In this document: one piece after another, positions 7,150 to 54,861 of the stretch
Position numbering within the stretch: position 1 is the first letter of the stretch
Layout of the letters: each line of letters starts with the position of its first letter
Assembly (NCBI GenBank): GCA_026874595.1
Contig: CM049320.1
Coordinates: forward strand, 32,210,214 to 32,274,213
Direction of reading: 5' to 3'
Length of the DNA: 64,000 nt
DNA from: Sipunculus nudus
Lineage: Eukaryota > Annelida > Sipuncula > Golfingiida > Sipunculidae
Notes under the pieces: generated by a model
The model's input: the letters and a program-made list of their open reading frames with translations, nothing else
What the model was told of the DNA's origin: nothing
The model's database searches: none
Program-made: the position numbers and the translations under genes

Positions 7150-7700
7150 TTTTAACATGAGACAAGAGAGGAATGTATTGCAGTCACAGAGGACACCACT
7201 TGGTGGTTTGCCGTTGTAGCAGGGGAATATAGATGAGCCTAAGTAGCAAAGCAATCCAAGGCTTTGTATAAGATATATAGATATAGATGAGACTCTTTGG
7301 TAGAAAGTTATTTTAGGGGCCGCCTACTAAATTCCCTCTTCAGTTTCCAGAAGTCTGCGTTCCGCCAGTTAGGATTCGGTGCCGCCAGGTGGCTATCAAG
7401 TGCCGCTAGTCGGGGAGCCCATTCCGCCAGTCAGGGGCTAGAATTGGCTAACCTGTGCATGTTGGTATACCCTACGTTAAGGTGTAGAACACAACTGCCG
7501 TTCGACCTGTACACGTTGGTAAAGCAAGCGCTAGTGTGCGTTTAATGACATTTTAAGCAATTAAGAGTCCATCCTTAGTTTGTAACAAGAGAACTTTGAA
7601 AGGCCCAGAGCTTCTCTTTAAGTTGCATTGGTACACGGCTTGGGTATTGGTACTCTGAAGTGGTGGCTCTGGCAACTGAATTTTAAATTGTCAGGTGAGG
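7150..7700 (+). mobile_element. Ty3/gypsy-type LTR (LTR 1)
   Basis: LTR-like sequence shared with 28279-28985. Both have an ACATGAGACA-like start, then GATGAGCCTAAGTAGCAAAG, a cluster of about 20-bp CCGCCAGT-type subrepeats, GAGAACTTTGAA, ACGGCTTGGGTATTGGTACT and TGGCAACTGAATT. It is followed directly by the leader and integrase of the same element, which fits a 5' LTR. The borders are inferred from the similarity between copies. A clean TG...CA pair and target-site duplication were not found for this copy. Confidence 0.6.
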
Positions 7701-8885
7701 CTTAACACCACCATTCATTGTTTTATCTCCCAGATTTAGAAGACATTCGGCAACGTGTCGTCGAGTTGTGCCGTTTCGAACGGATTTCCTAGGTTTTGAT
7801 GTTCTGTAAACTCAGTCGGGTCAGGTATCGTGTCCGTCAGTTAGTCCGTGTTCTTTCACGGTAGGTTTAAGGGTAGCATAAGGTGCAGTCGCGTTATCAC
7901 TCGGGTCGAGACGGGTCTTTTGTCGTATATAACGTAGTTATAACTTAGGATCGTGCGTCCCCGCTACGCCACCTCTTATCACTATGTACCTGTTGAAAGA
8001 GGTCATAGACGGTGGTAAGGCGATGGGCTATACAGGAAAAGATTTACAGAAGTTTTTTTTTTTCAGAGCCAGGTTGCTTAGGTTAGACAGTAAGCCGCGA
8101 AGGAACGAAATGAGCTTGTGAGCACGAGTTAGATTTACGCAATAGAGTGCGGGAGAAGCATGCCTGGGCTCGTAAGCACGAGTTAGAGATACAGAATTGA
8201 GAGCGGGGGGCTCGCAGGCATGAGATAGAATTAGCGAGGTGTGGGGTCGCGTCGCGTAAGCAAGTAATATACTAGGCTGCACATGTTCATTCTCCGGCAG
8301 TACAGATCCTTTGAGATGGGCACTCGCAAGAGGCAAATCCCAAAGTTGCCTCAGCAGAAGAATCCCAGGTAATGAAACGTAAGCTAGGCAGGGGACGCGT
8401 GAACTATCCGTGCCACAACATGGATGCAGATTGTTACCCGTTTCACGTAAGAATGGCGACTCCGTGCGCGATACGTTTACGAAAAGTATAGGCATATCTT
8501 CTAGGGAGTGGTGGTACCGACTGCTCTGTGAGACCACGTGATGACGTTAGGCCATAAGACCATGCATTCAGGTCATAAGGGTATTTAACATAAGTATGAA
8601 AGAATACGTAGCCAGGTTTTCTTTAAGGTAATGTATCGGGAGTCGTACAATTATTGTAAGACGTGTGACATGTGTCAGCGTACGATACCAAATGGTAGGG
8701 TTAGGACCGTTCCCATAGGTAAACTTTAAAAACGTAAATCCAAGAACCGTTCTATCGCATGGCCGCAGAACTGATCGGACTAATATAGCCTGCATCGGAT
8801 TATTCACGGTTATGCACTACCCATTCGTTGGCCTGAGGCTGTGACAAAGCAGAACGTAGAGACGGTTACGGAAGCACTGGTACTA
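7700..8885 (+). mobile_element. Ty3/gypsy internal region, leader plus 5' half of integrase (decayed)
   Basis: Leader sequence (8100-8280) includes about three degenerate 50-bp subrepeats with CACGAGTTAGA and then GTGTGGGGTCGCGTCGCGTAA, which recurs at about 47840. Most of gag and pol is missing. From about 8590 the plus strand encodes an integrase zinc-finger remnant (YCKTCDMCQRTIPNGR) and then the start of the catalytic core, with several stops and frame changes. The integrase reading stops exactly at the CA/TA tract at 8887, and the matching 3' half is found at 21249. A dead element. Confidence 0.75.
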
Positions 8886-8886
8886 G

Positions 8887-8920
<34 letters not shown>

Positions 8921-8921
8921 C
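8887..8921. repeat. (CA)n(TA)n microsatellite at the break in the integrase
   Basis: A CA run followed by a TA run. It lies at the position where the uninterrupted copy at 48180 has only a short TATATATACACGCAGG tract, so it marks the left edge of the candidate 12.3 kb insertion. Confidence 0.95.
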
Positions 8922-8927
8922 TTATAA

Positions 8928-9290
8928 ATGCAACCATGGGGGGACCACGACTATCAGGGGACCGGATCAATTTCATTATTTCCAGTTCAAAGTAATTGCA
9001 AATTGCTCCATTATCAATTAATTATACATAAAAGTATTATTATTTTTTTAATTTTTCTCAATTTCTTATTTACGTAAGTGACGTATATTTTTTCGGTCCC
9101 CCGATAGTCATCGTGCTTTTTCACATAAAATTGCAACTTCAGGAGACCGATTCCGGTCCCCATATAGTCGTTTTTCATATTACGTCCCAGAGTTTATTTT
9201 AGTTTTCATATGGACAATTAATCGAATCCAGGATGTAACCCTTAGTTTGTGTTCTTGGTAAAATTATCTAAACTAATAATATACAACACA
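8928..9290. repeat. GGGGACC/GATAGT repeat family, left copy
   Basis: Contains TGCAACCATGGGGGGACC, ACTATCAGGGGACCGG and, on the other strand, TTCGGTCCCCCGATAGTCAT. The same motifs, inverted, form the repeat at 20345-21185. AT-rich between motifs. Confidence 0.55.
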
Positions 9291-9560
9291 TTTACCATCG
9301 GGAGACCAAAAGAACTATCGGGGGACCATATATCATATACGATTAACTATCAGGGGACCACCACACTACCAGTAGACCATATATCATAAAAGATTAACGA
9401 TCAGGGGACCACCATACTCCTAGGAGACTATATCACATAAACGGTGAACAATTAGGGGACAAATACGCCATCGGATAAACCATTTATACTATACAAGGTG
9501 AACTATCCGGGAACCAACATAATACCATATTTATCATATTAAATAAAAGGTGAACTATTG
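9290..9560. repeat. Minisatellite, period about 52-58 bp
   Basis: About five units of the form CTATCAGGGGACCACCA, a middle with TAGGAGACCATATATCAT, and an end like AAAAGGTGAA. Units diverge to the right. Confidence 0.7.
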
Positions 9561-9884
9561 TTTTGAGGACTGTTGTGTCATTCCCTGATCGCTCGGCCCC
9601 TATCGCTTAATGTTGGGTCTGGAGATCGTCCGCTAGTCGATTTATATAACAAAAAAAAAACAACAAGAAACGAATGTGTCATTTCCCATTTCTTATTATT
9701 AGGCATAAATGCTATTTTTCTTCATATAACAATAATTTTGTAGTTACTGTCATGTTTGTCATTATAGATGCTATTTTGCTTACGTTTGTTTCGGTTGAAA
9801 AAGAAGGGAAGTGGCTTTGAGCCAGAGAGCCATGTGTTTATTTGCGTCCTTGGGTTAATTATCTATCTTTATATCTGATACGAT

Positions 9885-10420
9885 GATTACACTGTTCATA
9901 ACATGACTATTTTTTGTTCCCCATCACTTATCACTGCTCATTACATAAATTATTTTTTGTTACCCATCACTAATCCCTGTTTATTACATGAATTAATAAT
10001 TTTATTACCCATCACTTATTTATGTTCATTATACTTACCTGATTAATTTTAGCTACCCAACACATATAACTGTTTATTACATGAATTATTTTTTGTTACC
10101 CATCAATTATCACTGCTCATTACACTGCTCATAACATGAATATATTTTTGTTATCCATCACTTATCAATGTTCATTACACTGTTCTGAATAATTTTTGTT
10201 AACCATCATTTATCAATGTTCATTACACTGTTAATTACATGAATAATTTTGTTAACCATCACTTATTAATATTCATTTCACTGCCCATTACATGAATATT
10301 TTTTTGGTTCGATCGCTTATCACTGTTCATTACCCGATGTTTTTGTTACCCCTCACTTATCACTGTGCATTAAATTAATAATTTTATTTGTTACCCTTCA
10401 TTTATCATTACTAGTATTAA
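9885..10420. repeat. Degenerate minisatellite, period about 50-60 bp
   Basis: Roughly ten units built from TTTTTGTTACCCATCACTTA, TCACTGTTCATTACA and TGAATAAT. No coding potential. Confidence 0.75.
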
Positions 10421-12570
10421 TGAAAATGCAGAGGATAAAAAGCTCAAATTGCAGATAATAATATTGGCTCAGGGACCCTTTTATTACGTATGCTACAGGT
10501 CCCTCACCACAGTCATCCGACACTGAGGGTTTAATATACTAGTATATGCCTATTTTTTATTAGGTAAAGCTATAACTGACACGACCCCTTTCAGTGATCC
10601 CGAAAATGGTCTGATCGTCAGTCCGGGATTTTACTGTTAATTGTCAATGGTGTGTTTGTCTGGAGTCAGGTCGGCTTAATCCAGCTAGTGGACAGGACTG
10701 TATATGTTTATTACGACAATTAATGTAAGCGAAATGTTGAAATCTTTACTCAAAATTATAAATATTATCAACAACATACGGGAAAATTTCTGCTTACTTT
10801 GTAAACATGTGTAGTACTTCTATGGAAAAAAAGTTATGACTAATGACCTTTTCTTGTTTAAATCCACATAATTATAGGTTAAACGACTACTGTGTCTTGT
10901 TAAACACCGCATTCCCACTGCAGTGTACAGCAATGTAGTGTTATTGTCTGTAGTGAATCAGGCTGTCAACAAGGATGCTTGGTTTGGTGACCGGCAACCT
11001 GTGAGGTCAGCTGCTAGCCAGCAGAAAGCAAGCCAGTGACACTTGGCCCCAGGGCAGCTTGTCAAGTGGCTTGCTGGGTACCGGTATTCGGGTAGGGTCT
11101 GTCTAGATAATATTTCAGTCCGTCAGTGTGTACGTGTACAACTAGCAACATTAAAAACTACTGCAAACTAATGAAATATAAACACTCATAAACATTTCAA
11201 ATGTCATGCATTTTTCATGAATATTTGAACATTTCTATAATTTTATAACTTATCAGTAAATAAATCTGTATAATTGATTCTTCACAATTCCTGAGAATTT
11301 TACAAACCATTTTCTAAACCAAAATGTTTGCCATATTATAATTTCTGCATATTTATTCCATTATGCTGATAAAATATGTTAAACGACAATTACTAAAGGG
11401 AAACTTTTTAAGTTAGTCTCTGAAAATTTAATTACACGTTCAGCATATGGTACAACAACAGATCAATTGGATATTGAGTCATGGTGTCATTTTAATGAGC
11501 GTCATATTTGTAAGTGAGACCTTCCATCCACTGGAAAAGTACGTTTGAATTATACAGGAACGGAATATAAATAAATAATGAAGAAACAAATAAAGGGAGC
11601 AGCAGGAAAATTGGCTTGTGGTCCAACACAATTCCACAGAATATCTAAAAATTCAATTAGAACTTTGAGAGATGTCGGGAGGATATAAAAACAGAATGGG
11701 TTTTTATATACCATTAGCAGCTGCGAGTAAGTTTATTATGGTTAAGCATGTCATGTATTACAAAAGCACTGGCATCACCGCAATGACGTCATAATGATAG
11801 AAGTATAAAAGAAATGCGTTGACCTGGCGCCTTTTTCCTTTTTTTTTTTTTTTTTGGTATATACAAAACAGGGTATCTGTCCGCGAGTGAGATCCTGAAA
11901 ATAACGGAATATTCTTGAGACGATACATGTTGTATGAAATCGATAGGCGGTCCAATATGCATCCCACTTTTCTTCTAAAATGTATTTGTTGTAAATATCT
12001 CCATAGGTTTTCTGTAATTTTCACTGAAATGTTGTTGAAGGGTGTGCAATGGGTCAAGGAACAATATCTTATTTTCTATGGTTCATCTGTTAAGATTAAG
12101 TTTGTAAGAGGATACAAATCCATGCGCTGGCAGAGATATGGGCTCTATGAGTGCTCTCTAGTTTTGGTATATGCGTCTATCCTTTTGAAGTATAACTCCG
12201 TCTGGTCAAGCAATGGTGAATTACTGTACTCTACCGAGCATTTCGAGGTACTATGTTGCAAGATTTTTCTTTGAATTAAATATCTTTATACATATATTGA
12301 CCCTTTTTTTTTATTATAATCACATTTGAATTAAAACGGACAAAGCTCCATGAGAAAAAATAGCCCCATCAGTTGTTGCTATTGATTGTATGAGTTGGGA
12401 GACGATATAAAAAATTGACTTGGCCTAATACAAGGATATTTACTTACCGCGATGCATGAAAAGAAATTACTCATTGTAGCGATCGGATACGTATACCGAT
12501 CAGGCACGAAGTATACGCATCACGCACGATAGATATTTGTATCCATGACTATAAAGGTCATATACATAAG
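10421..12570. other. No gene or repeat recognised
   Basis: AT-rich sequence with only short ORFs and a T17 run near 11838. The ORFs at about 11758-12274 overlap on both strands and have no recognisable motif. Confidence 0.5.
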
Positions 12571-12574
12571 ATAT

Positions 12575-12795
12575 TACCCGCACACGGACCACGCATCACA
12601 CTTACAATATATGTATATATGGGTTCCTGGCTTTATAGGATTGCACATTATGCGTAAAAGTCTATGAATCAAGCATACTCCGACATGTATATAGATTTAG
12701 GGTGCGTGATCCGTGTGCGTGGGGTATGGTGCGTAGAATGTCATGCGTAAGATGTACAAACCTGGGTTCCTGGTTTAATCTGCGCATTATACGTG
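12575..12795. repeat. Local inverted and direct repeats
   Basis: CGCACACGGACCACGC (about 12580) is the near-complement of GCGTGATCCGTGTGCG (about 12704). In addition, GGGTTCCTGG plus a GCRCATTATRCGT end occurs twice in direct orientation (about 12620 and 12767). Confidence 0.5.
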
Positions 12796-14059
12796 AGCAA
12801 GTAGTTAAATATAATAGACCATCTTCCAGTACTAGGTTACATTCAGCGCAAGGTTCTAAGAAACAGTCGGAGAGGATGCAGTGTTTATTCACATTCTGAC
12901 CTTTTTTTCAAGGCTAAAAATGAAATACAAGAAAACAAATATCCTGAGTTTACAATCTGCTGTAACTTTCGACATGACTAAAACTCAAAAGGTTGATTAC
13001 TCATGTGTTTCAATAAAAAGGAAATATGAACTACCCAGAAAGAGTAAACATTTCGTGTCATATCTGTTCACATTGAGTGTGAAACATCCCAAACTGTGAA
13101 CTTTTGTTTTACAGCAGTTTGCAAGATTGTAACCAAGTTACCATAAGTAAATGCCATGGAGGCTGGCCAGCAGCACATTTCCCCGACGTTTGATTCTGTT
13201 TTATCTTGTTCATGATAAAAATGTCCGAGGTTTATATGTGTTTGCTAAGATATAAATGTCTAACCCTGCATTTTTGTAAAATATACATACAGCTATGAAT
13301 TGAAACTTTACTGCATGTATAAAGTCAATAAAAGATTATGCTCGGAAAAGATGAGGGGATTGGTTAAGAGGGGGCGGGGGGCTGAACTCGGAAGGGAATG
13401 TAGCCCTTTCGGGACAGTTACTCCAGATAATTGACTTTTTGAGTACTCAGTGGAGGATGTCATTGTCACTGAAATTTACTACACGGGTTTTTTTATATAG
13501 TATATAGTTCTCAACCATGATGAGGATCATCTGATATGACTTGATTAAACCGGACCCTGCTTAATTTCGCTTATTCCTATCAACAGTTATGTAAATCTGT
13601 GAAACATGTCTGTACAACATCTTCGAAATGAACGTGATTAAGCCCATCTGAGTCCAGAAACATACACTCGCTTAACTCTGTACAAGTCTTGACCTCCGTA
13701 CCGGACACTGAAGCGGTAATTAATTGTTGACTTTATGCAGAATGGATCTTGAAACGTTGAAATCTGGTAAGTACAACTGTGTACTCTTAGCTTTAATCAC
13801 ACCTGTAGCTTATACCCTCTCGATAAGCTTCATTTCAACGACACATCTGATCCTTGCGTTTCAGAAAAAAAAAGTGTCAGTGACCATTTGGTGCCCTGAA
13901 AAGCAAAACAAAATTCTGCAGCAAGCATTAAGTTATCTGGTGTATAATATTTTAATAATCAGTCCATTTTGGATATCAGTCATCATACCCAAGTATTCTT
14001 ACCGCTTTAAAAAGAAAATTGATCCAATGATTCCTGAGAAAATTATAAAGATCAAGCAT

Positions 14060-14760
14060 ATTCTTGTTGAGATATCAGGTGCCAAAGAAAATTGCCCATT
14101 GTGCCCTGGTGGCCATATTGGAATTCAGACAGACCTGTAATTCGATAGGGATATTATCCTTATAGGTACCAATCATCCTTGTGAATTTGGGAAAGCTGAA
14201 GTATAATGTTATTTAGTTATCGCGTGCGAAAGAAAATCAGCGATTGGGCTGGGGCGGCCATATTGGAATTCTGAGAGGTCTGTAATTTGATAGGTCTGGA
14301 GCCCCATACGTACCAATCATCCCTGTGAATTTGGGAAAGCTGAAGTATGTTATTTTTGAGTTATCGCGCACGAAAGAATATCAGTGATTGGGCTGTGGGG
14401 GCCATATTGGTATTCCGACAGGTCTGTAATTCCACAGGTCTGGTGCCGTTGTATGTACCAATCATCCTTGTGAATTTAGGAAAGCTTAAGTATGCTGTTG
14501 TTGAGTGATCGCACGGGAAAGAAAATCAGCGATTGGGCTGTGGCGACTATATTGGAATTCGACAAGTCTGTAATTCAATAGGTCTGGAGCCCTCTTATGT
14601 ACCAATGATCCCTGTGATTTTTGGAAAGCTGAAGAATGTTGTTGTTGAGTTATCGCGCGCGTAAGAAAGTGTCGCTGACGGAAGGACAGAAGTACGGAAA
14701 GACGGAAGGATGGACTAACACGGTGATCACTATAGGGCACCGCTTGTCAAGCGGGGCCCA
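14060..14760. repeat. Tandem repeat, period about 145 bp, with hairpin tail
   Basis: About 4.5 units with GGCCATATTGGAATTC, TGTAATTC.ATAGG, ACCAATCATCCTTGTGAATT, GGGAAAGCTGAAGTA and GAGTTATCGCGC. The array ends in GACGGAAGGA-type 8-10 bp subrepeats and the hairpin GGGCACCGCTTG/CAAGCGGGGCCC (14735-14759). Confidence 0.75.
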
Positions 14761-17700
14761 AATTATCAATACATACAAGTTAGACGTGCAAACATGCAAC
14801 TGTTTAATTACATAGTTGTCGTCTTTAGTTAATTAATTTATAACCCTGAAGTTCATGATCACATATATCAAGATTCAGTCATTTATTCGGAATAATATAA
14901 AATAATGTTAAGTCAATATTATTTGCCCCTTTTTGAAAATAAGGTTGGGAGAATTTTATCGGGTTATTTGGGTGTTAACCAAAAGGCGGTGTTATAAGGA
15001 GAATTTTGTTCAATGGTGGTGGTGGTGTGTGTGTGGGGGGGGGGGGGCTGGGGGTGTTACATATCGCGAAAAACATTAACCCCATGATCGAGCTTTTTGT
15101 CAGACATGTAAACAAGACCTTTTGGGTGCATTTTGTTGCCCAAAATAGAAATTTTACAAGATTATTATGGTACATGCAAGATGGGTATGTGTCATTGTAT
15201 AAACTAATCTTAACTTTCCTATATCCTCTTTGGTTTAGTACGGTTTAATCTAGATCTGATTTATTCATAAATTGAGTAAAGACTGATTGAATGACTTATC
15301 TGGCCGCTGCTCTTTGCAAAATTACCGTACCAGTAGATGTGTTTATAGGCGACAAGATGAAACAAGCACCGGGAATGTTGAATACAGGTATTAATTTACG
15401 TGACGCAGCAGGAGACTATATAGAGTGACAGGTGAGTTCACGCACTCACAGAATTCTCGACTGAAGTTCGAGGGAATGAATAATCCGTCCACGCCCTTCG
15501 AGAGACAGTTAAGACAGCTCTTCTTTCCAAATTGCTCATACCGTATTTTACGTAATAAGCCCCCCCCCCCCCTCCCCTCCGGATTTGCGAGATCACTTTA
15601 AGAAAACTAAGGGATGATCCATCCTAACCTCACTTTTCTCCCTAACCAATATAACATATGGCAACGTAATGCTTTCATTTCTCCCCGCCAAGCTTAAAAG
15701 TAACCGCCAGTTTTTATTCCATCTCCGTTAGGCTTTATCATCTAATATAATGATAATATTAGTTACACACAACAGAATCAGTGTTCAAGTGTGTCATAGA
15801 TAATATTGAATGTGTCCGTGACTGTGTCCGTGATGGCCGACCCTGCAGGTGGCCATGCAGATCGGGGGACTTGAATTCAGGTACGTATGATGATGTATTT
15901 TGCAATGAAATATATATACCTACCGTATTTGCTCGTGTTCAGGACGATAAATTTTATCCTAAAATATTTGGCAAAATGGCAAAGAAGGGCGGTCGTCTTA
16001 TATACGGGTACAAGTTTTTCAGCGTCCTCAGGGCCGCCAAGGATCAGCAATATTACGTCGGTCGAACTGGATGCCGTGAATATCGGTGATCATGTCCGTA
16101 TGGTGGTAATATACACTCAATATAGATCATTATAATGCTTTTTTTTTTGTTTGAATTTATCGTTTATACATCAATCTACATGTGCACATTGTTGAATAAT
16201 TGGTTAGAAAAGGTTTGCCTTTGCCGCATTGACACAGGGATTTTAACTGAATCAATATATGAAAGCCCTTTGGACTGTAGAGCCAGTTATTTTCCGCGAT
16301 CGCGGACGGAATCGCGGAACTGACAGACCGAAACGGAATTCCCAGTCCTGAAAATATATGTTTTAATGTTTTTTTTTGCCAAAAATATCTCGGCGATTCA
16401 CGTGAAACATGTATGCAGTGATATAATTGCCGATGCCGCTGACAGCGCGCTGGGGTTACCCATGTACTCAAAATCCCAGAGCCCTGGGTTTATTCGTGTG
16501 TATACAGCGCTCGCACAATGGTTGCTGGGAACTTGCCTACTTGGCTTAATGCCATCCAGTAGCACGTAATATGCATATTAAAACAAGGATGTTTTTTCAT
16601 ATGGTGCCGTATTTACCGCGTAAAATGTTCACGAGTCCAGTGAAGCGGACGCTGTCAGCTGGCTTGCACACTGACATACCCGGAGACTCGCACACGGCAC
16701 TTCAATAACAAGACAGTAAGTAGCACGTTATAATTATAAATATGAAGCGGCCTTTCCTCAGGTGACGCGAAATTCAATGTTTGTCAAGCTTGTATTATTA
16801 GACTACGTCAAGAAATGAATGTATTATAACGGGTCAACAAAGTTCAAGAAAGGTACCGTGTTTCCGCGGGATATAAATATGACGATTTTTCTCACAATTT
16901 TAAAACAAACCCCCGGATTTGGTGCGTATACGCACTGAAGTTAATATAATACGCTTGAGTCTGAGGGCCAGTATTTCAGCTTTTTTTAAATGTTTGCATG
17001 TAATATCATGCACAATGAAGGACAAAAAGGACAATTATTGGCGATGCCATTCCATGTCATACATCGGCTCAGCTGTCAAAGGTATTTGCGCAAGGTGACT
17101 GACATAATCGGGGTACCGACGTCCCGTATTATATTTTTCATCTTTCAAATAAATACTGTTTTACATACTTTTTTATGAACATTTTATATATTCTACTTCC
17201 TTATTAGGCGGTGACTTTTATTAAAGAGTTGATTTATTACCATCCTTATTTTTCCTCTTCGAACTGCAGTCATTCATACAATTCTCTCATACAACACAAA
17301 ATAAAATCGTCTGCAAATCGGTATCACTTGGATAAGTTATTATTTTTCAAAACTTCCCACAACCATCGCTAAAAGATCGTTGGTTTTTCTGAATTGTCCT
17401 GAATGTGCTGTGAAGTCAAAGACATGTACACAAGCCGCAGTGTTAAATTAGAGGATCGTAACGCACATTGGAAATTGTCAGATGTGGGGTTGGGGGTGGG
17501 GTGGGGCGCTTATTAGTACATAAAATATTTGAAAATATACATATATACATAGAATAAATATATTGATGACGAGGAGGCGGCACCTGGAGATATATCTATG
17601 TATGTGGTGCGGATATGCATAAATCTGACATAGTGAGATTCTTTTACATAGTCAGTTTCTGTTATTTAATGTTTGATATTATTAGATCAATAATATCTTC

Positions 17701-18000
17701 TTATCTAAGATTCTTCAGTTACTGGATACAAATTCGAAACTTTTTTTCCATGTCACCACGAATCTTACATATCATTTTATCAAATATCACGAACCAAACT
17801 TGTTTCCCGTAAAAGTGATATTTAATATTAATGATGAACTAAAATCAACATATGATGACAACTTTGAGATACTTGCAAATGAATAATCACTTTCATTGAA
17901 TGTCATTACATATTTTTACTTTATTGTTGTTTAGTTATCCACAGAACCAGGATATACTTGTTTGACTGTCCTCTCCTGGACAGCTAGGCAATCGTTGTGC
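14761..18000. other. No gene recognised; scattered TACCGTATTT motifs
   Basis: Low-complexity C and G tracts (15034, 15559) and ACCGTATTT-like sequence at about 15540, 15921, 16606 and 16856. These may be fragments of one dispersed repeat; the stretch 15921-16008 starts TACCGTATTT and ends ATACGGGTA. ORFs at 15781-16569 overlap these repeats and show no protein motif. Confidence 0.4.
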
Positions 18001-18005
18001 CAAAT

Positions 18006-18099
18006 ACCAATCTGTAGATACAATACATGTATGCATTTACGTACATATAATACATAAATATTAATGTATACATGCAAACACATAAATTTACAGATTGGT
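18006..18099. repeat. Small foldback sequence
   Basis: ACCAATCTGTA and its exact complement TACAGATTGGT flank a 72-bp AT-rich centre with ATACATGTATGCAT and GTATACATGCAAA, able to form a long hairpin. Confidence 0.5.
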
Positions 18100-19539
18100 C
18101 AAAATTTTATGGCAGAGCTAGCTATGGGCATATTTTCTGACAATTTCACTTTTGTCTTTTAATTTTTAGAGGATGCATGTTGTTCTAGCTGAACGTTCGC
18201 TTAACGTAAATGGGCCCAATCCGCACATGTAGATGTATTTATAAGAAAAAAAGAATAAGAAAAAACATGTGCTCAGATAAACTTGCAATATAGTGCCACC
18301 ACCACAAGCGTAATATGACTAAATCACCTGGCAACGATGAACAAACCATTCCAGAAATCAGATTAACACAGTGTCATAGGTTTATAATATCATTTTGATT
18401 AGAACCTTTTAAATGCGAAATGTTAATTTTCTGGGATTACTTTTTTTCAAATGATAGGAAACACATTCATAGGCAGCACATTGAAACGAAGTATGTTGTA
18501 TCAGAGCCTTTTATTTGCTAGAGTGTGTTTTATTTAGTTGCACATGCATCACGTTTTGTCCTTGATTTATCCACCAAAAATGAACATAGGAAAAAATATA
18601 TAAGGAGGGTGTTGATAATCGGCAGCCTCAACACGCGTATATGAAAATTAATGAAATATTTAATGAAATAATGATGATCTAACCCTTCTTAAAGAAGCCC
18701 TTCATTGTTGTCCGACTTTCACTCAACATGATGCCATGATTCTGTTAGAATTTTATTTGCAATTTGACATATTTTTCTTCCTTAATTTAGGCTCATATTT
18801 GCTGATGACGCTCACTTAGACGTACCAAGATCGTTGTATCTATAAGCGTGAACTGTCGAGATACGGCAAGGATTCTTTGAGTAGTAATCAGTGCATATAG
18901 ACATTTTAAAAGCCAATCTGTTATTTAATAAATATCCAATTCACTCTCTCCAGACTTATCACGCAGATTTTGGACGGACAGACACTGCTGATACCGTCAT
19001 ACGACCCGTCTATGAGATGGGCGTATAACAGTATTAAATACATACTTTTTTTGTAAAGTAAAAACAAAAACAAACTAAATATAGTTGAATTTGCAAGCAA
19101 TCTCAAGGTATCCCTGCAGAGAGTCAGGAAACAGTAATCTGCTCATAAGTTTTTAAATTGCTTAGAGACATTGGGTACGTTTAATTATATTCTTACAAAA
19201 CATATGGGAAATATGGTCAGTTGTAGGTTAACCAAATGCTGCACATATGTGATTGATCCAGGCCAGCATGCAAACATTTCTGAACTCAGTTTAGTATGAA
19301 TAATATTAAGAACTAACCTTGTGAAACTGAAGCTGTAGGCATAATGATAGAACTAGCAGTCTTCAGATGATGTATAATATGAGCTGAAAATGGACTGTTA
19401 AAGCTTATTGAGCAGTGGGTCCAAGTAGTTGTAATATGTCTGTAGTACACCAGTAACTGTGATTTGATGAAAAGTACTGACATATATGGTGTCCAGGAGT
19501 GTTCTGTCAATGTAGTGTTTTTTTTTAATTAAATGTGAA

Positions 19540-20240
19540 TATTTGCATCTTTAAGGAAATGACCTAATTTACATGCACAGATTGACCCAAAAGTTAATCA
19601 ACTTGTAAGAACGGTACTTTCAAGGTATTTACAGAGTTTGGTACAAATCACATATATGCTTGGTTATGTCTCAAGCATGAGCGCAAAGAAAACGGCCCGT
19701 TAAGCGAATTAGAATAATTAAGCTGTATAGAGACAACTCTTGAAATCTAATCAGGTCTTGCCTTTTACTTGGTAGGTACACGTATAAAGTTTCCGCCTGA
19801 TTAGCCCCGCAGAACTTGACTTATCAAGGTGGCAAGATAATACATGTGGGAAGGTAATTAATATGCAAAATAGGTATACTTAAGCAAATAAGGCATACAT
19901 ACGCAAATGAGATCATTAGTTTTCATTAGAATCTGGTCCTCAATGAAAAAGTGCTGCATACATGTAATGGAAAGATTTGAGAATTTGGTAAAATTAAAAA
20001 TTTACACATGGCTGTTTTACATAATTATGCAAATGCCCTACTTAATATGCACAGATTGACCCCAAAAGTTAATCAACTCAGAGGGGTACGCTCAAGGTAT
20101 CTACAAAATTTTGTACACATCACAATAACGGTCATGTCGAAAGCGCGATCGCAAAGAAAACTGCTCGTTAAGCTAATTAGCATAATTAAGCTGTAGAGAC
20201 AACTCTGAAAATCTAATCAGGTCTTGCCTCTTACTGATTC
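19540..20240. repeat. Direct repeat, period about 473 bp
   Basis: Two copies of about 200 bp share GCACAGATTGACC, AAAAGTTAATCAACT, TCAAGGTAT.TACA, GCTGTA.AGAGACAACTCT and AAATCTAATCAGGTCTTGCC. Confidence 0.75.
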
Positions 20241-20344
20241 AGTAAACATATGAAATTACAGCCTAAACGGACCAGAAGAATTTGAAATATTGTGGTCGCA
20301 AAAAGTGTCGGGATTCTTAAAAATAAAAATCGATACAATTTATT

Positions 20345-21185
20345 ACAGTTTCTCAGTCGGCGGTCTCCCGATTGTCGGTTATATACAAATAAAAATAGCA
20401 ATTATGCAAACGGTGCTTGAACTTTAACCTTCCCAAAAATCGTATATTTACTGTTCTCAGTATTTTTAGGTAAGATACTCGACAAAAGTCACAAAATAAA
20501 CCTGTCTATCAGTTTAATAATATTATAAATATGGTCACATGGATAATATCACAAAGAGAGCGGGACCAGTGGAAACAAATAAAAAATATCATAAAAAGGA
20601 GGAGACAACTGTAAGTTGTTGCAAGTTGTCTTCTGAAACTTAATTACCACGGACCTTTGCAGAATAATTAAGAGATATTGTGAATTTTGCGAAAAATACT
20701 ATCGGGGACCACTGTTCGGTCCACCGATAGTATTCGGTCCCCGTAAGTCGGTTGTATGCAAATAAAATCAGCTAAAATCCTAACGGTGGCTTTAACAACG
20801 ATTTTTGAAAATCTACAATTTAATATTTCTGAAATATTTTTCAGGGTTAACTTGTTAAAAGTCACAAAACAAAACCAATATATCGATTTTTCAAATAAGT
20901 TATATGGTTACAAAGAAAATATCACAAAGACAAAAAAGGACTATCATGGGACCAACGGAAAAAAAGAAAACTTTCATCATAATGGGAAGACAAATGGGAC
21001 TTCTTTCATTTAATTCATATAACTGTATGTTGTCCTTGCAGGCATGATGACCAGGGAGAATTACAAAATGCATCTCAAATAATGTATAAAAGTTTAAAAA
21101 AACTATCGGGGGACCGCTGTTCGGTCTCCCGATAGTCTTTGGTCCCCCGTTAGTCGGTGTTTTATCCCCCGATGGTCGCAATAAT
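20345..21185. repeat. Tandem repeat, period about 373-406 bp, GGGGACC/GATAGT type
   Basis: Anchors AGTCGGT at about 20373, 20746 and 21152. Each unit carries an internal inverted pair, for example ACTATCGGGGACC then GGTCCACCGATAGT (20699-20732) and ACTATCGGGGGACC then GGTCTCCCGATAGT (21103-21136). Related to 8928-9290 in opposite orientation. Confidence 0.75.
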
Positions 21186-21188
21186 AGA

Positions 21189-21194
21189 AATATA

Positions 21195-21247
<53 letters not shown>
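21189..21247. repeat. (TA)n microsatellite at the right edge of the candidate insertion
   Basis: About 27 TA units. They end exactly at CGCAGGTAGGT, the point where the integrase sequence resumes. Confidence 0.95.
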
Positions 21248-21248
<1 letters not shown>

Positions 21249-21249
<1 letters not shown>

Positions 21250-22180
21250 GCAGGTAGGTAAAGCGTCCGACATTCTTACTGACATTGGGAGTCGATTTAC
21301 CCATGAACTCCTGCGTGAGATTAACAGCTTGCCATCTATAGAAGCACTACACAACAACACCTCACGAGCCGATGTGCAGCGAGATGGTGGAGCGGTTCAA
21401 TGTAGCTTTTCCTGAAGGAGATGGTTTATAAGCGCCCCAAAGATTGGGTTCAGTGCGTCAATGCTGTATCGCGAAGTTCCACAGGAAAGCATGATGAGTT
21501 GCTTAACGGGCGGTCGGTTTGAGGTCCTTTGCGGTTATTGACAAAGGAGGGCACTGGTGCAGAGGTTAAAACCACATATTAATACGTGTTGACCTTACAG
21601 AATGGTTAAGTGACACGTGCGCCGTCGCAAGTGAAGCATCAGAAAGGCTGAATTTCTAGAGAAGCATTATCATGATAGAGGCATGCGGTTGTGCGATATC
21701 AAAACTGGTGATCATTTTTTCTTGTTGTTTCTGGCCGACTGCACAAACTATTTGTGCAATGGAAAGAGTCATATCCGGTTTTGGGAAGGTCAGTGACCAG
21801 GAAAACCGAGTTAAGGTCAATAGGAAAGTGAAAACCTCTTTATTAATCTGCTCAAGCAGTATCGTACTAAACCAGAGCCGCAACACATTCTCGCTGCCGT
21901 GAATGAATAAACACGTGAAGAGGGTAAATCCTGTATTTGGGCTATCGTGGGACAAAGATCAAAGGGTTAAAGCTAACGGTGAGGGACTTTTTTTCCCCAA
22001 GCTCAGTTCCGTACAACGTACAAAAGCATTCGATTCGGTCTCATAAAAAATTAGAGCAGGCTACTCTAACGTATACGACGTATGAGTCGGACCAACATTT
22101 TGTGTAGAAAACACATTAATTTGTAATATGTTTATTTAAGAGGGAAGTGTGTCATTAAGTGTGCCATTAAACACTGAAGG
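21249..22180 (+). mobile_element. Ty3/gypsy integrase 3' half and C-terminus (decayed)
   Basis: Plus-strand remnant of the integrase core and C-terminal domain. Recognisable blocks are ASDILTDIGSRFT (core, second catalytic Asp region), SEMVERFNV (catalytic Glu region), RPKDW and YREVPQES, then the C-terminal part ending with a VKVNRKVKT-like stretch near 21835. Multiple stops and frameshifts are present. It continues the element whose 5' half is at 7.15-8.885 kb and is the paralogue of 48.18-48.9 kb. The expected 3' LTR is absent, and the sequence passes into the shared block at about 22190. Confidence 0.75.
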
Positions 22181-24628
22181 GGAGTGTTTTGTTATTCACT
22201 AGCTTAATTTGCATTGAGCGTGACCAGTTCAACTAGCAAGGTACTTTTAAATGGGAACTCAACTGCACTTAACACTAATTATGTTAAGCTGGCAATCACT
22301 AACAATCTAATCAATATAGGGGTTTCCATGTTATTTTTATGCATTTTCTATGAATCTTCATCCTCTCGATCGGTTCATATAAGCATATGTTTATGGTCAA
22401 CGAAATCATTCATGTAACTTTCAACACATTTTTACAAATGTATTTATCTAGGCTTCCTGAAATATTCAGTGTCACATGGGACAGTTATTTTGCATGATAT
22501 AAATTGCATGTATAAAATTGTTTCCTTGTCACTTAGGCCGAGAAACTGGCAGAGTGCCCCCTTACTAATAAAATAATGTTGGTTATTCTACATGACACAG
22601 GCATAACGATCGGCGACGTTAAATGGCATTTGTACTAATTGCCATGCTTCAGCATGTGATTTATTTTTAAAAACATAAACCCACCTATTACATTAAATTG
22701 CATAACCTGTGCTTCTGTGGCTGCGATAACTCCTTCGCGAGTAAATGTAAAAGTTCCCAGAATACAAGGAATAATATGTGGGATGACCCCGTTAATGAAA
22801 AAGTTACAGAAAATGATGGTTTACCGGCGAATTGCTTGGAGAAGTCGAGTGGTAATACTGTCAAGTATCATAGGGTGAAACATTTTGGGTCCTGCGTTTT
22901 TATATTTTTTTATGTTTATTTTGATACGATAGGGCACTTATTTTGAATGAGGTCATAAATTTTCATATAAAGGCATTTTTTGTTTGCTTTGTCCCTTAAT
23001 GTTTCGTTGCAAAATACTGTAAGAAATGCCATGTTTTTTTTTCTCAATCAGTTATATGGGTATTTGCAACAGAGACAACAATAGTTAGCAGTATAATATG
23101 ACAGAAGTAGTATTAATAACAGGAATTTGATCTCATGCTAAGTGTGGTGTAAAACAAATATAGTCCGAGTAAATTGGCGACGATTGTACACTTTTCGGGC
23201 TAAATACCAATGCTATGACGAAACTAATCAGATAGACTGCTGACTTCTTTATTTGGCAATGTCTGAATATTTTCGATAATTTGAATGTCCACTAGAAATA
23301 AAATGAAGTAGCTAACATAAAGCGCTATAACTGGGGTGACAACAGTAAATATTTCGGCAATAGTGTTAAAAAGATGTATGTCCACAGAACAGATAAACGT
23401 CACCCGGCCTGCACATAATGAGCAGAGAAAGGAAAGATATTAGAACAACTATATGTATGCAATCGCCAAAAAGATTTATGGAAGCCAAACAAAGCCCTAC
23501 CCCCATACCCTTACCCACGTTCAGAACTGGGCAATTTGCGGGTATCGGCTACGGAGTGTGCGAACTTGGGAATAACATAAATGTCAAAAATAAATATAAA
23601 GTACCAATTTGTGATTTAGGACAATCGTTGTGCTCATATTTCTTTTCCTTCAATGTGCCATAATGGAGATCTAGCACACAGAAAATGACTTAGGAAACAA
23701 AAAAAAGCAAAACATTTGAATTCGTTTGCACCATGGTGACCTCAGAAGGTTCAATTACCAACAATAACCCCTTCCATATAAACAATTAAAAATATCATCA
23801 AATCGGGGAGAAGGAAGCTTGTTTTTATTACCCTGTATAATAATAGACCCAACGCTGCTACAATGAAGAATGCTGCCCGCTTCCCAGATTACCTTAATTT
23901 TTATACAGGATAACCCTTTCAGTCAAATATAACTGACCTGCCACACAGCTTGGTTGGACAATGCAGTTTATAGAATCTTGAAAAGTACAATAACAATATA
24001 ATAAGTATTGCATATTCACATATACTTATGACATGCTAGGTAGTGCACAGTTCGTTCACGAGAAGTACAGGATTAAAGGGAAGATCAAATGTAACATGAC
24101 ATACAAAATAGCATTAATACAATGGGCGGGGTGTTCAGGTGATTATTTGAACATTTTAGAACGACTTTAATGAGGAGAAATTTCTCTGTGAGTCACACAA
24201 TGTGTTTCACAATGTAGGGATAATAATTTATAAATTTTTCAAATAGTCGGTCCGAGGTTCGGGTGATATAATTTTTGACATGGACATTGCCAGGTCATTG
24301 AAATCATATATATTCAAAAACTGGATAATGCCAGCTCTCTCGACCTAGATTATATCGAAATACCCAAACATGATTAACAACTAAAATTGATTATATACTA
24401 CTTTCCTTTCCATGAATTTGTTTGTTTCTCTGTTAAGCTAAAAATTGAAGTGACTTTGTCCATAAGATATACATGTACTTTTGGATTTTAGGAATTATAG
24501 ATCAATGTAATGTGTGTTTTATAATAATGTGTTTTAATCCTAGTAATATAATCCCCCCTGATGCATTATATAGAGCACAGAATAAAATTTCCACAATTTG
24601 CATCCAGGTATCTTGTTTCTGGGTCACG

Positions 24629-25629
24629 TCAGCTGCTGGTTGTTTTGACTGCGACAAGCATTACATTTGTATAAACATCCTTAGCATGACATGGGTGACC
24701 GTCATTCCTACTTTCTCGTTCCACAGCAGCCAGCATATCATCAAGCAAATCTTCTCTCAAATCCTTAGGCACCAGATCCAGTGCAGGATGTATACCTTTT
24801 AATACAGCTGCAGTCCAAACATTTTTCATGAACATTCAATTTATACTTCATCGAATATTATCAATATTAAATCAGAATGTTTCATAAATATTTGAAGTCT
24901 CTTCAGATATTAAGAAAAAAAATATATAACTGCATGAGTAGATTTAGCATGTTGTTATTTATACTAAAAGGGAAAATGCGTATTTATTTTAAACAATATT
25001 GTATTTTATGAAAACCAATCTGTTTAAGTAAATTTAACAAATTTTACATGAAAAAAAAAAGTTTAGTATACCTCTGGTCATTGGCATCTCAAGAAGAAAC
25101 ACTTCGTAATGCATGACGTCAAATCCATGCCTCAGGACCATTTCCTTGAATACATTGTTTTTTGTAAGCCAGGGCACCCCTTTCGCCTTTGACGGGTCCA
25201 TACTCGCTATAATCCATTGCGGTATAACATGTTCTAATTCCTGAAATTTCAAGCATAATCTATACAATCTATGGTTCATTTAGTAACAGTGGATGAGAGT
25301 GATAATCAAACGAATGATATATTCATCTTCAAGTGAGATGTAAGTTAATAATGCTAATAATTGTTGAGTGCTGTCATTCCGTTACCTCAACGCTTATCCA
25401 CTTCTTCCATCGAGGGCATCCTATAATCGTTTTCAAAATAGCAGCCAGGTAACGGTAGGGTTGATAAAACAAAGGGAACGATAACATGACCCTTCCACCT
25501 GGTTCAATGAGCCAGTTGATGTTATCAAGAGCACATTCCATGTCACGAACCCAATGAAGCACGAAAAAGGAGGTGGCATAGGAAAATTAAGATTTGTACG
25601 TGGAGCTGTCTTTTAGGTTACGATCCTGA

Positions 25630-25686
<57 letters not shown>

Positions 25687-25699
25687 TATAGTCATTTTA

Positions 25700-25730
<31 letters not shown>

Positions 25731-27300
25731 TACGGGAAGAGAGAGAGAGAGAAAGAGAGAGGGATGGATGTGGTTGGAACGCATCCATCGAATCTCAGAG
25801 CCTAAGCTTTTCTTACAAGGCTGCACGATAAGTCCTCTATTATTTTCATTATTCCATCTACGGAACATCATATACATTTTCTAGACACTAACATCTGCTT
25901 GTTTCACAGAAATGTCAAATACTCCTGTCCCATCATTCATACCTAGAATGTAATAACAATATATATAATTTCTTGGGTTGAGAGTAGTTATATACTAAAA
26001 TTTGTCGGAGACGCCACAGTATCCTTGGACATGACATACAACCTTGTTCTGAAGCATATATTGACATTTTAATAGGCCATGATTACAAGGGTCAAGTTCA
26101 GAGTTTTTAACTTGTCCAATAACCTATTTATAATAAAATGTGTATCTTAATTGATTAAATGTTATGGAACATTTCAAAAGTTATAGGGTTCATAAAAATT
26201 GTATAATTTTAATAATCAGCTAATTTGATCTTGAAGAAAAATGTCAAGGTCGCTAGTTTTCAAACCTGTTCATATTTTTTATATAAAAAATGGTGTGTCT
26301 TATTTGATTCGCACTACTTCAACAGTTATTTGGTTCACCAAAACTTGTACATTTTTTCACATTAGACCTTAAATACCAAGGTCAAGTTCAGAAGTTTTCA
26401 AGCATATACAAGATCTTAGTGGAATTAATTTGTGTGTGTATTGTTGAGAAGAATATCCAGTACACGAAATTATGAATTTCAGCATTATCCTATATTTCGG
26501 TAGATTTGACCTTAAAGATCAAAGTCAGTTGTCAGCTGATTTTGTAAAGAATTAACCTTGACTTTCTATTAGCCATCTTTCAATTTTTATTTCAGAAAAT
26601 TACTTCCCTTAAGAAATATTGTTTGTTTTTCATTAAATATTGAAATATTCTAGGTAAAGGCCACTCTCATAATAAGGTCATGGCCCAAATCATAGCAGAC
26701 TTCATTATCTGAAACATATCTGTGCATTTGTAGAATAAAGTTGCGCCACAAATACCAAGCGTAGGACAAACCTATCAAAGGTCATCAGCGAAAAGGGTTA
26801 TCGAACCAATCCATTCAGACCTTCTTTGGAAAAATACCATTTGTTCGTGTCAAGGTCACTATCGTATTGAAGGCAATTACCCCATTGTAAACAGTTTTCA
26901 TCCTCTCATTAACATCTATGCACATGATAAGTTTCATATAGATCAGTGAGCTTTTTTCTGTTGTCTCGTTCGCAAGAAACCGTGCTAAAACCATAGTATC
27001 TCAGGCTTCCTGTCTGGGAATAGACTAATTACCAACCTGTATATCCATTCGTTCAGCCAAAATACGATCGGCCTTGTACCTCTGTCTGACGTATTTTATC
27101 ATGGGTTCGCTCACATCCACTGCGGTGACATGGCAGTTAAACTTCTGCTGCAGGTAAGAGCTTGTCTCTCCTGTCCCACAGCCGATATCAATCACGTGGT
27201 CATCCGGGCTTATATCTGTGATATACCTGTCTATGGCGAATCTTCCGAATTCCTTCTGATGCGTGTTTCCGGCAAGGTAAGCCGTTGGTGGACGCTGCAT
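24629..27300 (-). pseudogene. JHAMT-like class I SAM-dependent methyltransferase, copy A (four exons, one nonsense codon)
   Basis: Minus-strand spliced gene. Exon 1 is 27300-27037 (ATG, 88 codons), exon 2 is 25625-25386 (80 codons), exon 3 is 25240-25072 and exon 4 is 24807-24629 (ends TGA). Every junction has GT/AG and the phases match (0, 0, 1), giving 283 codons, a normal size for JHAMT-like methyltransferases. Residues seen: motif I DIGCGTGE and VDVSEPM in exon 1 (SAM binding), then ATSFFVLHWVRD and the motif-III-like WLIEPGGRVMLSF in exon 2. Exons 3-4 form the variable C-terminal half. Family members methylate small carboxylic acids in the cytosol; the substrate here cannot be told. Codon 13 of exon 2 (25587-25589) is TAA where copy B has TAC (Tyr). 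No AG that would keep the exon lies between this stop and the HWV motif, so normal splicing would include the stop. It is a recent pseudogene, or an allele or assembly error. Intron 1 carries long AAT runs. Family call firm; exact family member uncertain. Confidence 0.8.
25630..25730. repeat. (AAT)n microsatellite in methyltransferase copy A intron 1
   Basis: Two AAT runs starting 5 nt from the exon 2 acceptor; on the gene strand they provide a T/A-rich tract just upstream of TTTCAG. Followed by a GA-rich tract at 25738-25762. Confidence 0.9.
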
Positions 27301-27699
27301 GGCTCTGGAACTACATGGACACAACAGAGTTTAGACACGTAACACCATTCCTGGAATTCTTTGTCTTTTATGTATATTATAATCATAATCAAGTAGACAT
27401 CATTCATACATGTGACCTTATATATGATCACGGTTTATTACATAAAATGGGAAATGATTGCCCATAAATCTTAAATCAATGTGATGCCACCTTCTAACCT
27501 ATGAGCAATTTAAAGTTTGGTGAATAAAACGAGTGATTTTCAAGAGCATTTGTTCTTTTGATTTTTTCGAGGGTTTAATGAACATGGATGGCCATCAAAC
27601 AAAATTTCCGACCTGAAAAAAAAAGAACACAAGGATGACAATTGTTTTGCAACAAGAGAGGCCAACTTGGTTAATGTATGTTTTTTCCATCATAGATTA

Positions 27700-47799: not shown

Positions 47800-49100
47800 T
47801 AGAGAGCTGGAATCCCCCGAGTATTAGCTCGGGTTAGCGAAGTTTGGGGTCGCGTCACGTAAGCAAGCAGCGGAGGAGGCTGCACGGGTTTAGTTTTCAG
47901 CAGTAATGTTGCCTTCTTTTGAATAAAAGATCAATTGGATCGATGCATATCTCTCGATTTTCGACTGGCTGTTAGCTAAGTGTATCTGCGAGATAGTTTT
48001 TTTTTTTTCTTATACCAAAAGAACCGTTCTATCATGTGGCAGCAGACATCATCTGACTGATATACCCGGAATCGGATTCGGGAATCGTTATATCCTCACC
48101 TTATAGACGAGGCCACTCGTTGGCCTCAGGCCTTGCCACTGCAGACCATAGAGACGGTCACGGTAGCACTGGAACTAGTAGATATATATACACGCAGGTA
48201 GGTATACCGGCCGACATTCTCACTGACATGGGGAGTCAACTTACAACCGAACTCCTGCGTGAGGTTATCTGACTGCTTTCTGTCAAAGCGGTTGACAACA
48301 ACGCCTTACCAGCCCATTTACAAGGAGATGATGGAGCGGTTTAATGTAATGCTGAAGCTTATGCTGAAGCGGATGTTTTCATAAACCACGGCCCAATGTG
48401 TCAATCCTGTATTGCTAGGTTCCACATGAAAACACGGTGATTTCTCCCTTTGAGTTGCTGAAGAGATACTTTACCGGTTAGAGGTCTTATGAACTCCTGA
48501 ACAAGCAGGGCACAGATGCAGATGTTAAAACCATATACCAATACATGCTTGATCTAAAAGAATGGTAAAGTGACACGTGCGCCTTCGCGAGTGAGGATTT
48601 AGAAAAGGCTGAATTTCGAGACAAGCGTCTTTGCGATACAGACATGATGTTGTGCGATATTGAAAACGATAATCATGTTTTGTTGTTGCTGACTGACTGC
48701 TTAAAGCTATTCATGCAATGGAAGGGGACATATCCGGTCTTGGAAAGGTCGGTGACCTTGATTGCCGAGCTAAGGTCAATAAGAAAGTAAAAACCTTCCA
48801 TATTAATCTGCTCTAGCAGTTGCATTCTAAGCTAGAGCCGAAACACATTATCGCTACGGTGAATGAATTAACACGGGAAGAGGATAATTCTTCTATTGAG
48901 CCATCGAGGAAAGAAGATCACTGGGTTAAAGCAAGGTGAGGCTATTGTCCCCAAGCTCAGTTCAGATAACGCAAGAGCTTCTGTCTCGTACAGATTTAGA
49001 ACAGGCGACTCTAAGGAATATGAGGTATAAGTCAGACCAACATTGTGTGTATAAAACACATTTATTTGTAATATGTTTATTTAATGGGGAAGTGTGTAAT
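47800..49100 (+). mobile_element. Ty3/gypsy element copy 2: gag start fused to integrase (internal deletion)
   Basis: From 47820 to 47990 the sequence matches the leader/gag start of the elements at 8.23 and 29.0 kb (shared GATCGATGCATAT). It then jumps directly to integrase at about 48015, so most of gag and pol is deleted. The integrase core and C-terminus are continuous across 48100-48890, with the catalytic-region blocks DILTDMGSQ and GIPADI visible, but with stops and shifts. It is the uninterrupted counterpart of the split element at 8.9/21.2 kb. Confidence 0.75.
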
Positions 49101-49111
49101 AAAGCGGATCC

Positions 49112-54289: not shown

Positions 54290-54861
54290 GGCTCTGGAGC
54301 TACATGGACACTACAGGGTTTAGACACAATACACCAATGCTGGAATTTCTTGTCTTTTATGTATATTATAATCATAGTCAGGTAGACATTATTCATATTT
54401 ATTATATATGGTCACAGTTTTATCGCATAAAATGGTAAATGATTGCCCATAAATCATAAGTCAAGGTAATGCCACCTTCTCACCTATGATCAATTTAAAC
54501 ATTGGTTAATAAAACGAGTGATTTTTAAGAGAAGTTTTTTTTTATTATTATTTCAAGAGTTTATTGAACATGGAGGGCAATTGAACAAAATGTTCCACTT
54601 TCAAGAAGAACACAAGACTGACAATTGTTTTGCAAAAAGAGACGCAACTTGAAGAATATATGTTTTCTTTCTTTCTAAGAAGTGGCAAAATTAATGTGAT
54701 ATAATATTTTTTATTTTACTTAAGTGCTATGATATTTGTATAACTTTATGGAATAAATCTTCTAAAAACATGTGTATTCAAAATGTGCTCATTCAGTAAA
54801 AAATACAGAATAAAGAACATTCATTACCATGCATTATTGAGATAACTCCTCTATCCTTAAC

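What the first reader, a model, noticed from the sequence alone, without database searches (positions are those of the whole stretch)
8886..21248. A gypsy integrase is split by about 12.3 kb, and an unsplit paralogue is in the same window
The integrase reading ends at 8885 and resumes at 21249 at the next codon region. The paralogue at 48.1-48.3 kb runs straight through. The two halves fit together with nothing lost but a short TA/CA tract, so the 12.3 kb between them is best explained as an insertion into segmental copy 1 after, or independent of, the duplication. The segment has no recognised gene and several tandem arrays. It may be a very large non-autonomous transposon or a nested structure not yet described.
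Basis: partly seen in the sequence, partly recalled or inferred. Interest (0 to 1): 0.8.

Follow-up and report, generated by a model that had tools for sequence, protein, structure and literature searches.

The report
Large noncoding transposon in TA microsatellite
The 12.3 kb that splits an old retrotransposon integrase gene is one copy of a small family of large "jumping" DNA elements, without any recognised gene, that sit inside TA-repeat tracts, a habit known from plant transposons but here on much larger elements.

Summary
The integrase relic stops at 8885 and resumes at 21249, and the 48 kb paralogue has no such insert. The 12.3 kb is very likely a real mobile element, not an assembly join. 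Its left end occurs 29 times in the 1.43 Gb genome (backwards control 0). Of these, 16 pair with the same right end 5.9-14.2 kb away, mean 11.5 kb. Fifteen left ends compared are 93.6-99.8% identical. The ends form a degenerate inverted repeat with clustered CTATCGGGGGACC repeats. No coding sequence was recognised in 22 of 36 pieces scanned. All 29 left ends abut (TA)n tracts, as do both ends of the 16 paired copies. Sister segments lacking the element have (CA)n(TA)n or (TA)n at that point, so a microsatellite most likely came first. Best reading: a large non-autonomous DNA transposon that targets TA microsatellites, like plant MuTAnT and SaTar elements but much larger. Its transposase and superfamily are unidentified. 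A segment 209 kb away carries the same insert at about 98%, so the filled locus was later duplicated.

The parts
8589..8726 (+). integrase zinc-binding (H2C2) piece of the interrupted gypsy-type relic
   Evidence: Pfam PF17921, E=4.7e-6
8742..8885 (+). left half of integrase core relic
   Evidence: aligned to 48019-48172 and to sister segments L025/L026
8887..8920 (.). (CA)n then (TA)7 tract, left remnant of the target microsatellite
   Evidence: sequence; sister L025 has (CA)n(TA)n here without the element
8921..21189 (+). the inserted element: large non-autonomous DNA transposon
   Evidence: 29 genome hits to the left end, 17 to the right end at 0-2 mismatches, 16 pairs
8921..8944 (+). left terminal inverted repeat (degenerate)
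   Evidence: inverted arms 8906-8944 and 21165-21203, 79%, TA tract included; local score 45 v. maximum 25 in 300 shuffles
21165..21189 (-). right terminal inverted repeat (degenerate)
8934..9515 (.). left cluster of CTATCGGGGGACC-like subterminal repeats, both orientations
   Evidence: 9 of the 17 window matches at up to 2 mismatches
20362..21153 (.). right cluster of the same subterminal repeats
   Evidence: 6 of the 17 window matches
9886..10410 (+). internal tandem array (43-55 bp units)
14064..14668 (+). internal tandem array (144 bp units)
12803..13452 (.). internal segment missing from copies c9a and c14a
15988..18256 (.). internal segment missing from copies c6a, c9a, c13a and c14a
   Evidence: all four; junctions of c6a, c9a, c14a
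21190..21248 (.). (TA)n tract, right remnant of the target microsatellite
   Evidence: TA-flanked in the other paired copies too
21249..22159 (+). right half of the integrase relic
   Evidence: 74.6% to 48179-49104
48019..49104 (+). paralogue without the insert; AGATATATATACACGC at about 48179-48194 marks the insertion point

Best explanation
The segment is one copy of a low-copy family of large (mostly 9-14 kb) non-autonomous DNA transposons with degenerate terminal inverted repeats and clustered subterminal repeats. A transposase encoded elsewhere (not identified) is inferred to bind the ends, excise or copy the whole unit and place it into TA-microsatellite DNA. In the window it landed in a (CA)n(TA)n tract inside a dead gypsy-type integrase gene, splitting it. 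The filled locus was later duplicated to a second place on the same contig. Shown: the dispersed family with fixed ends, TA flanks, microsatellites at the unfilled sister sites, no recognised coding sequence in the pieces tested, and high identity between copies. Inferred: mobilisation in trans and the role of the subterminal repeats.
For: Fixed left end at 29 places, backwards control 0. Right end at 17 places with 0-2 mismatches; the control of this pattern gives 31 hits at its 3-mismatch limit, mismatch numbers not shown. 16 of 29 left ends have a right end in the proper orientation, 5.9-14.2 kb. No similarity among 9 outer left flanks, 36 pairs. TA tracts at 29 of 29 left ends (28, the last) and at that of c17d; three rows without an intact left end were dropped. 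TA at both ends of 15 of 15 paired copies by eye, and of the sixteenth, c15b; by script, 16 of 17 right ends have a TA run of 10 nt or more within 40 nt, and one, L060, was not found by my motif. (TA)5+ tracts cover 0.39% of the window. Sister sites L025 and L026 without the element have (CA)n(TA)n or (TA)n there. Left ends of 15 copies are 93.6-99.8% identical; c6a and c13a, on different chromosomes, match at 98.4% over 9.8 kb. 22 of 36 stop-to-stop pieces of 60+ aa had no Pfam match above cut-off, and none of six frames tested is intact in all copies.
Against: No transposase-bearing member was found, so mobility in trans is inferred; the interiors of 13 of the 29 copies were not read. 13 of 29 left ends lack a paired right end in the pattern search. 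A target-site duplication cannot be read inside (TA)n. TA tracts may grow at or after insertion, or may have arisen separately in the sister segments; the 48 kb paralogue has only about (AT)4. The TIR outside the TA tract is short and imperfect. 14 of 36 pieces were not scanned, and a spliced degraded gene could be missed. One frame (11891-12271) stays open in 5 of 10 copies. Some copies share outer flanks and so are segmental duplicates, not separate insertions.
Confidence: 0.88

Rival explanations
1. Mutator-like (MULE) element: the same reading, but specifically mobilised by a MULE transposase of this genome, with 8-11 bp duplications hidden in the TA tract.
For: MuTAnT and SaTar elements, which share the TA-microsatellite habit, are MULEs. 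The genome lists 131 MULE matches (150 of 252 candidates scored), about three dozen of them equal-scoring in a 607-aa open frame.
Against: None of the 131 listed MULE places lies within a family copy, judged by coordinates. No target-site duplication is readable. The 26-nt end pattern hit only family members, so no MULE with closely similar ends was seen.
Confidence: 0.4
2. Helitron/Helentron-type rolling-circle element carrying satellite-like arrays, as reported in oysters.
For: Long noncoding element with internal tandem arrays and variable interior; such Helentrons are reported in Crassostrea (PMC7492417, seen only as a search listing with the start of its abstract).
Against: Inverted repeats at the two ends and TA tracts on both sides. 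No Helitron protein hit among the pieces scanned. The 3' hairpin was not tested.
Confidence: 0.06
3. Copies spread not by ordinary transposase insertion but by recombination between TA microsatellites (circular intermediates joining by homology, as proposed for SaTar elements).
For: TA flanks at every end examined and no readable target-site duplication; model proposed in PMC5907723.
Against: Conserved termini with an inverted repeat point to an end-recognising enzyme.
Confidence: 0.1
4. Assembly artefact: unrelated DNA joined at TA microsatellites.
For: TA tracts are hard to assemble; reads were not available.
Against: The same unit with the same ends recurs at many places with differing flanks, and the window's junctions recur in the 98% segmental copy.
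Confidence: 0.02

Closest known systems
MuTAnT (Medicago truncatula; PMC4486113: abstract, Results and Discussion read)
   Same: TIR DNA transposon family, mostly non-autonomous, lying inside (TA)n microsatellites; empty sites carry TA tracts
   Different: MuTAnTs are about 200 bp to over 1.6 kb with a 4.9 kb mudrA-bearing partner; here paired copies are 5.9-14.2 kb, with subterminal repeats and no partner found. TIR sequences were not compared
SaTar elements of guayule, rice, sorghum and citrus (PMC5907723: abstract and first part of the Discussion read)
   Same: non-autonomous elements at microsatellites, often without a readable target-site duplication
   Different: SaTars are described as small MULEs, often in non-nested arrays; the copies here are large, and end-to-end arrays were not systematically looked for
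Micron (rice) and TAFT (maize)
   Same: TA-microsatellite insertion, as cited in the two papers above
   Different: known to me here only through those passages; plant elements, not compared by sequence

Membership tests
Non-autonomous TIR DNA transposon | Multiple dispersed copies with the same two ends | tested here: met
   29 left ends, 16 of them paired with a right end
Non-autonomous TIR DNA transposon | Terminal inverted repeats | tested here: met
   39-nt arms, 79% complementary, TA tract included; without the TA tract the best local match is subterminal, score 32 v. maximum 26 in 500 shuffles, so the TIR is weak
Non-autonomous TIR DNA transposon | No transposase encoded | tested here: met
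   22 of 36 pieces of the window copy scanned, no Pfam hit above cut-off; 5 pieces from other copies likewise; none of six frames intact in all copies. 14 pieces not scanned
MULE (MuTAnT/SaTar type) | Insertion in TA microsatellites | tested here: met
   29 of 29 left ends; both ends of 15 of 15 paired copies and of c15b
MULE (MuTAnT/SaTar type) | 8-11 bp target-site duplication | tested here: inconclusive
   Flanks are TA repeats; 14 of 15 paired copies show no other direct repeat, 1 has a 186-bp one
MULE (MuTAnT/SaTar type) | mudrA-like transposase in a relative sharing the ends | tested here: inconclusive
   MULEs exist in the genome but none of the 131 listed lies in a family copy by coordinates; 13 of 29 interiors not read
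Helitron/Helentron | No terminal inverted repeats; rolling-circle ends and 3' hairpin (recalled) | tested here: not met
   Inverted repeats present; hairpin not tested
LTR retrotransposon | Long direct terminal repeats | tested here: not met
   Window self-comparison shows no direct repeat linking the two ends

The most novel reading that the evidence does not exclude
A transposon family of an unrecognised or newly microsatellite-specialised superfamily, probably in an animal, whose unknown transposase delivers 10-14 kb of noncoding DNA almost exclusively into TA microsatellites.
Probability: 0.35. Interest if true: 0.6.

Novelty: new variant of a known kind. Interest (0 to 1): 0.45.

Why it matters
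In the papers read, insertion into TA microsatellites is documented for short plant elements. A family averaging 11.5 kb (16 paired copies) with no recognised gene shows the same habit for much larger cargo. If the host is an animal, as I infer from recalled repeat motifs but did not test, it would extend the habit beyond plants. Unfilled, filled and re-duplicated versions of one locus sit on one contig, so the order of events can be read directly. Microsatellite flanks also make such insertions easy to mistake for assembly breaks.

Tried and rejected
Transposase hunt: Pfam on 22 of 36 insert pieces and 5 pieces from copies c12a, c9b and c9c; nothing above cut-off. Open frames were listed in the whole or partial interiors of 16 of the 29 copies and of relatives c17d and c7b. 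Besides retroelement-like frames in c10a (not scanned), c16a and c5a, only frames of up to 166 aa were seen. PF10551 search: 131 matches, none in a family copy by coordinates. The 127-aa frame at 11891-12271 was rejected as coding: it has a stop or gap in 5 of 10 copies, with 25 synonymous v. 61 other codon differences over the 7 copies that could be counted; no formal selection test was made. LTR and assembly-join readings were rejected as above. A long target-site duplication was rejected because only 1 of 15 paired copies shows a direct repeat beyond TA. One search gave no result for 12 of 15 pairs because of my faulty search expression and was replaced. Literature: eight answered searches (open-licence PMC papers only) listed no animal case that I recognised. 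Most listed papers were not opened. Two with the search words, on Drosophila Bari3 and Paramecium, were checked by passage and are not such cases; the arthropod MULE paper names TA microsatellites only in its reference list.
Full report
Observation. The window lies on contig C15 of an unnamed 1.43 Gb genome. A gypsy-type integrase relic runs to 8885. Its zinc-binding domain is recognised at 8589-8726, and its core is aligned to the 48 kb paralogue at 8742-8914. It resumes at 21249 and matches the paralogue to 22159. The duplication goes on beyond the integrase, to 27684 against 54666. In the paralogue the two halves are joined through AGATATATATACACGC. The frame on its left reads through this tract, and the integrase continues in another frame on its right (pieces 48061-48198 and 48057-48269), so the paralogue is free of the insert but is itself a frameshifted relic. 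The short right-hand and paralogue pieces gave no Pfam hit, and one paralogue piece had no integrase among its hits in solved structures. Their identity rests on mutual similarity and a weak match to an rve-bearing frame.

The insert is a repeat family. An 801-bp query across the left junction gives 41 matches (40 of 144 candidates scored, so a lower bound). Of these, 28 begin at query base 405-410 (window 8904-8909), at 80-97% identity, so the left edge is a sharp family boundary. A query across the right junction gives 79 matches, of which 15 run from its start to base 807-853 (window 21206-21252) and stop within the TA tract. The 26-nt left-end pattern with up to 3 mismatches is found 29 times, and its backwards control 0 times. 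The right-end pattern is found 24 times, 17 of them with 0-2 mismatches and 7 at 3; its control gives 31 hits whose mismatch numbers are not shown, so the seven 3-mismatch rows are not counted. Of the 29 left ends, 16 have a right end in the proper orientation at 5.9-14.2 kb, mean 11.5 kb; 13 do not.

Anatomy. The two ends are inverted arms (8906-8944 and 21165-21203, 79%). With the TA tract their local alignment scores 45 against a maximum of 25 in 300 shuffles; without it the best alignment is subterminal, 32 against a maximum of 26 in 500. Of 17 window matches to CTATCGGGGGACC at up to 2 mismatches, 15 lie in the terminal 0.6-0.85 kb of the element, in both orientations; five shuffled windows gave 0 or 1 each. 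The interior has tandem arrays. It differs between copies by blocks present or absent, such as 15988-18256 and 12803-13452. Sharing of such blocks between copies suggests deletions handed on by transposition. Copies c6a and c13a, on C6 and C13, lack the same block and are 98.4% identical over 9.8 kb. Among 15 copies the left 640 bp are 93.6-99.8% identical, median 96.5%. Of nine outer left flanks compared, none of the 36 pairs match. A few other copies share flanks by eye: window and c15b, c17a and L034, L042 and L046, c17d and c17f. The number of independent insertions is therefore somewhat below 29.

Coding. Of 36 stop-to-stop pieces of 60 aa or more in the insert, 22 were scanned and none reached a Pfam cut-off. 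None of six frames followed across copies is intact in all of them. The best kept, 11891-12271, is open in 5 of 10 copies, with 25 synonymous and 61 other codon differences over 7 copies. Whole or partial interiors of 16 of the 29 copies hold nested retroelement-like frames but no recognised DDE transposase. The genome has many MULE transposases, about three dozen equal-scoring in a 607-aa frame, but none of the 131 listed falls within a family copy by coordinates.

Target. All 29 left ends abut alternating TA (28, the last), as does that of c17d; three fetched rows without an intact left end were dropped. Both ends do so in 15 of 15 paired copies compared by eye and in c15b. By script, 16 of 17 right ends have a TA run of 10 nt or more within 40 nt; the other, L060, was missed by my terminal motif. 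TA tracts of five or more units make up 0.39% of the window, the element's own included. The key comparison is local. Segments L025 and L026 on the same contig match the window flanks at 84-90% but lack the element. At the junction L025 has a (CA)n(TA)n tract and L026 a (TA)n tract, each beside a different 0.95-1.0 kb insertion. The window has (CA)n(TA)7 on the left and (TA)n on the right. The simplest account is that the microsatellite was in place and the element entered its TA part, although separate TA growth in the sister segments is not excluded. The 48 kb paralogue has only about (AT)4. No target-site duplication can be read inside TA. One of 15 pairs (C12:19.65 Mb) has a 186-bp direct repeat at 93.5% around the element, unexplained.

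History, read from identities. The 48 kb paralogue (about 74%) split first, the L025/L026 segments (84-90%) next. The element then entered the window lineage, and the filled segment was copied to C15:32.43 Mb, where flanks and insert match at 97.9-98.3%.

Mechanism. A transposase supplied in trans most likely recognises the ends and inserts the unit into TA-repeat DNA. The ends, flanks and family are shown; the enzyme is inferred. Plant MULE families MuTAnT and SaTar behave alike, so a MULE partner is the leading guess, at about 0.4. The SaTar authors also proposed circular intermediates joining microsatellites by homology, which is not excluded here.

Novelty. The kind is known; the size, the lack of a recognised gene and the possible animal host make it a new variant. 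Eight answered literature searches listed no animal case that I recognised, with two listed papers checked by passage. They cover only open-licence PMC papers, most of which I did not open. The host's identity as an animal, perhaps a mollusc, is recalled from repeat motifs and untested.

Noticed in passing
L025:968-1957 and L026:1055-2000 (approx.): A different 0.95-1.0 kb insertion with hAT-like ends (TAGGGTCCTGCGCGGGGC...GCCCGCGCAGGGCCCTA; hAT label recalled) lies at almost the same integrase site in two sister segments; in L026 it is flanked by GTACATAT on both sides.
   Followed up: partly
L021/L022 (C9:2996000-3011100): Copy c9b runs into a very regular array of 1,269-bp spaced units; part of each unit resembles a segment of the transposon family, a possible transposon-derived satellite.
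   Followed up: no
L023:7740-9998 (-): A 753-aa open frame has integrase domains before reverse transcriptase and RNase H, the reverse of the usual gypsy order; resembles the Gmr1-like arrangement (recalled).
   Followed up: no
L067/L068 (C12:19.645-19.656 Mb): One copy of the transposon is flanked by a 186-bp direct repeat at 93.5%, unlike the other 14 paired copies compared.
   Followed up: partly
genome-wide, e.g. G000:C4:53097908: About three dozen equal-scoring MULE transposase matches in a 607-aa open frame suggest a recently active MULE in this genome.
   Followed up: no
window 21235-27684 and 48179-54666: Segmental duplication (74-83%) extending well past the integrase; a methyltransferase-like fragment lies at 52515-52973 (-) (below Pfam cut-off). 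More pieces of the segment match at C15:32.14-32.53 Mb.
   Followed up: partly
window 28388-29155: A third stretch similar to 7225-7695 and, in part, to 47859-47999.
   Followed up: no
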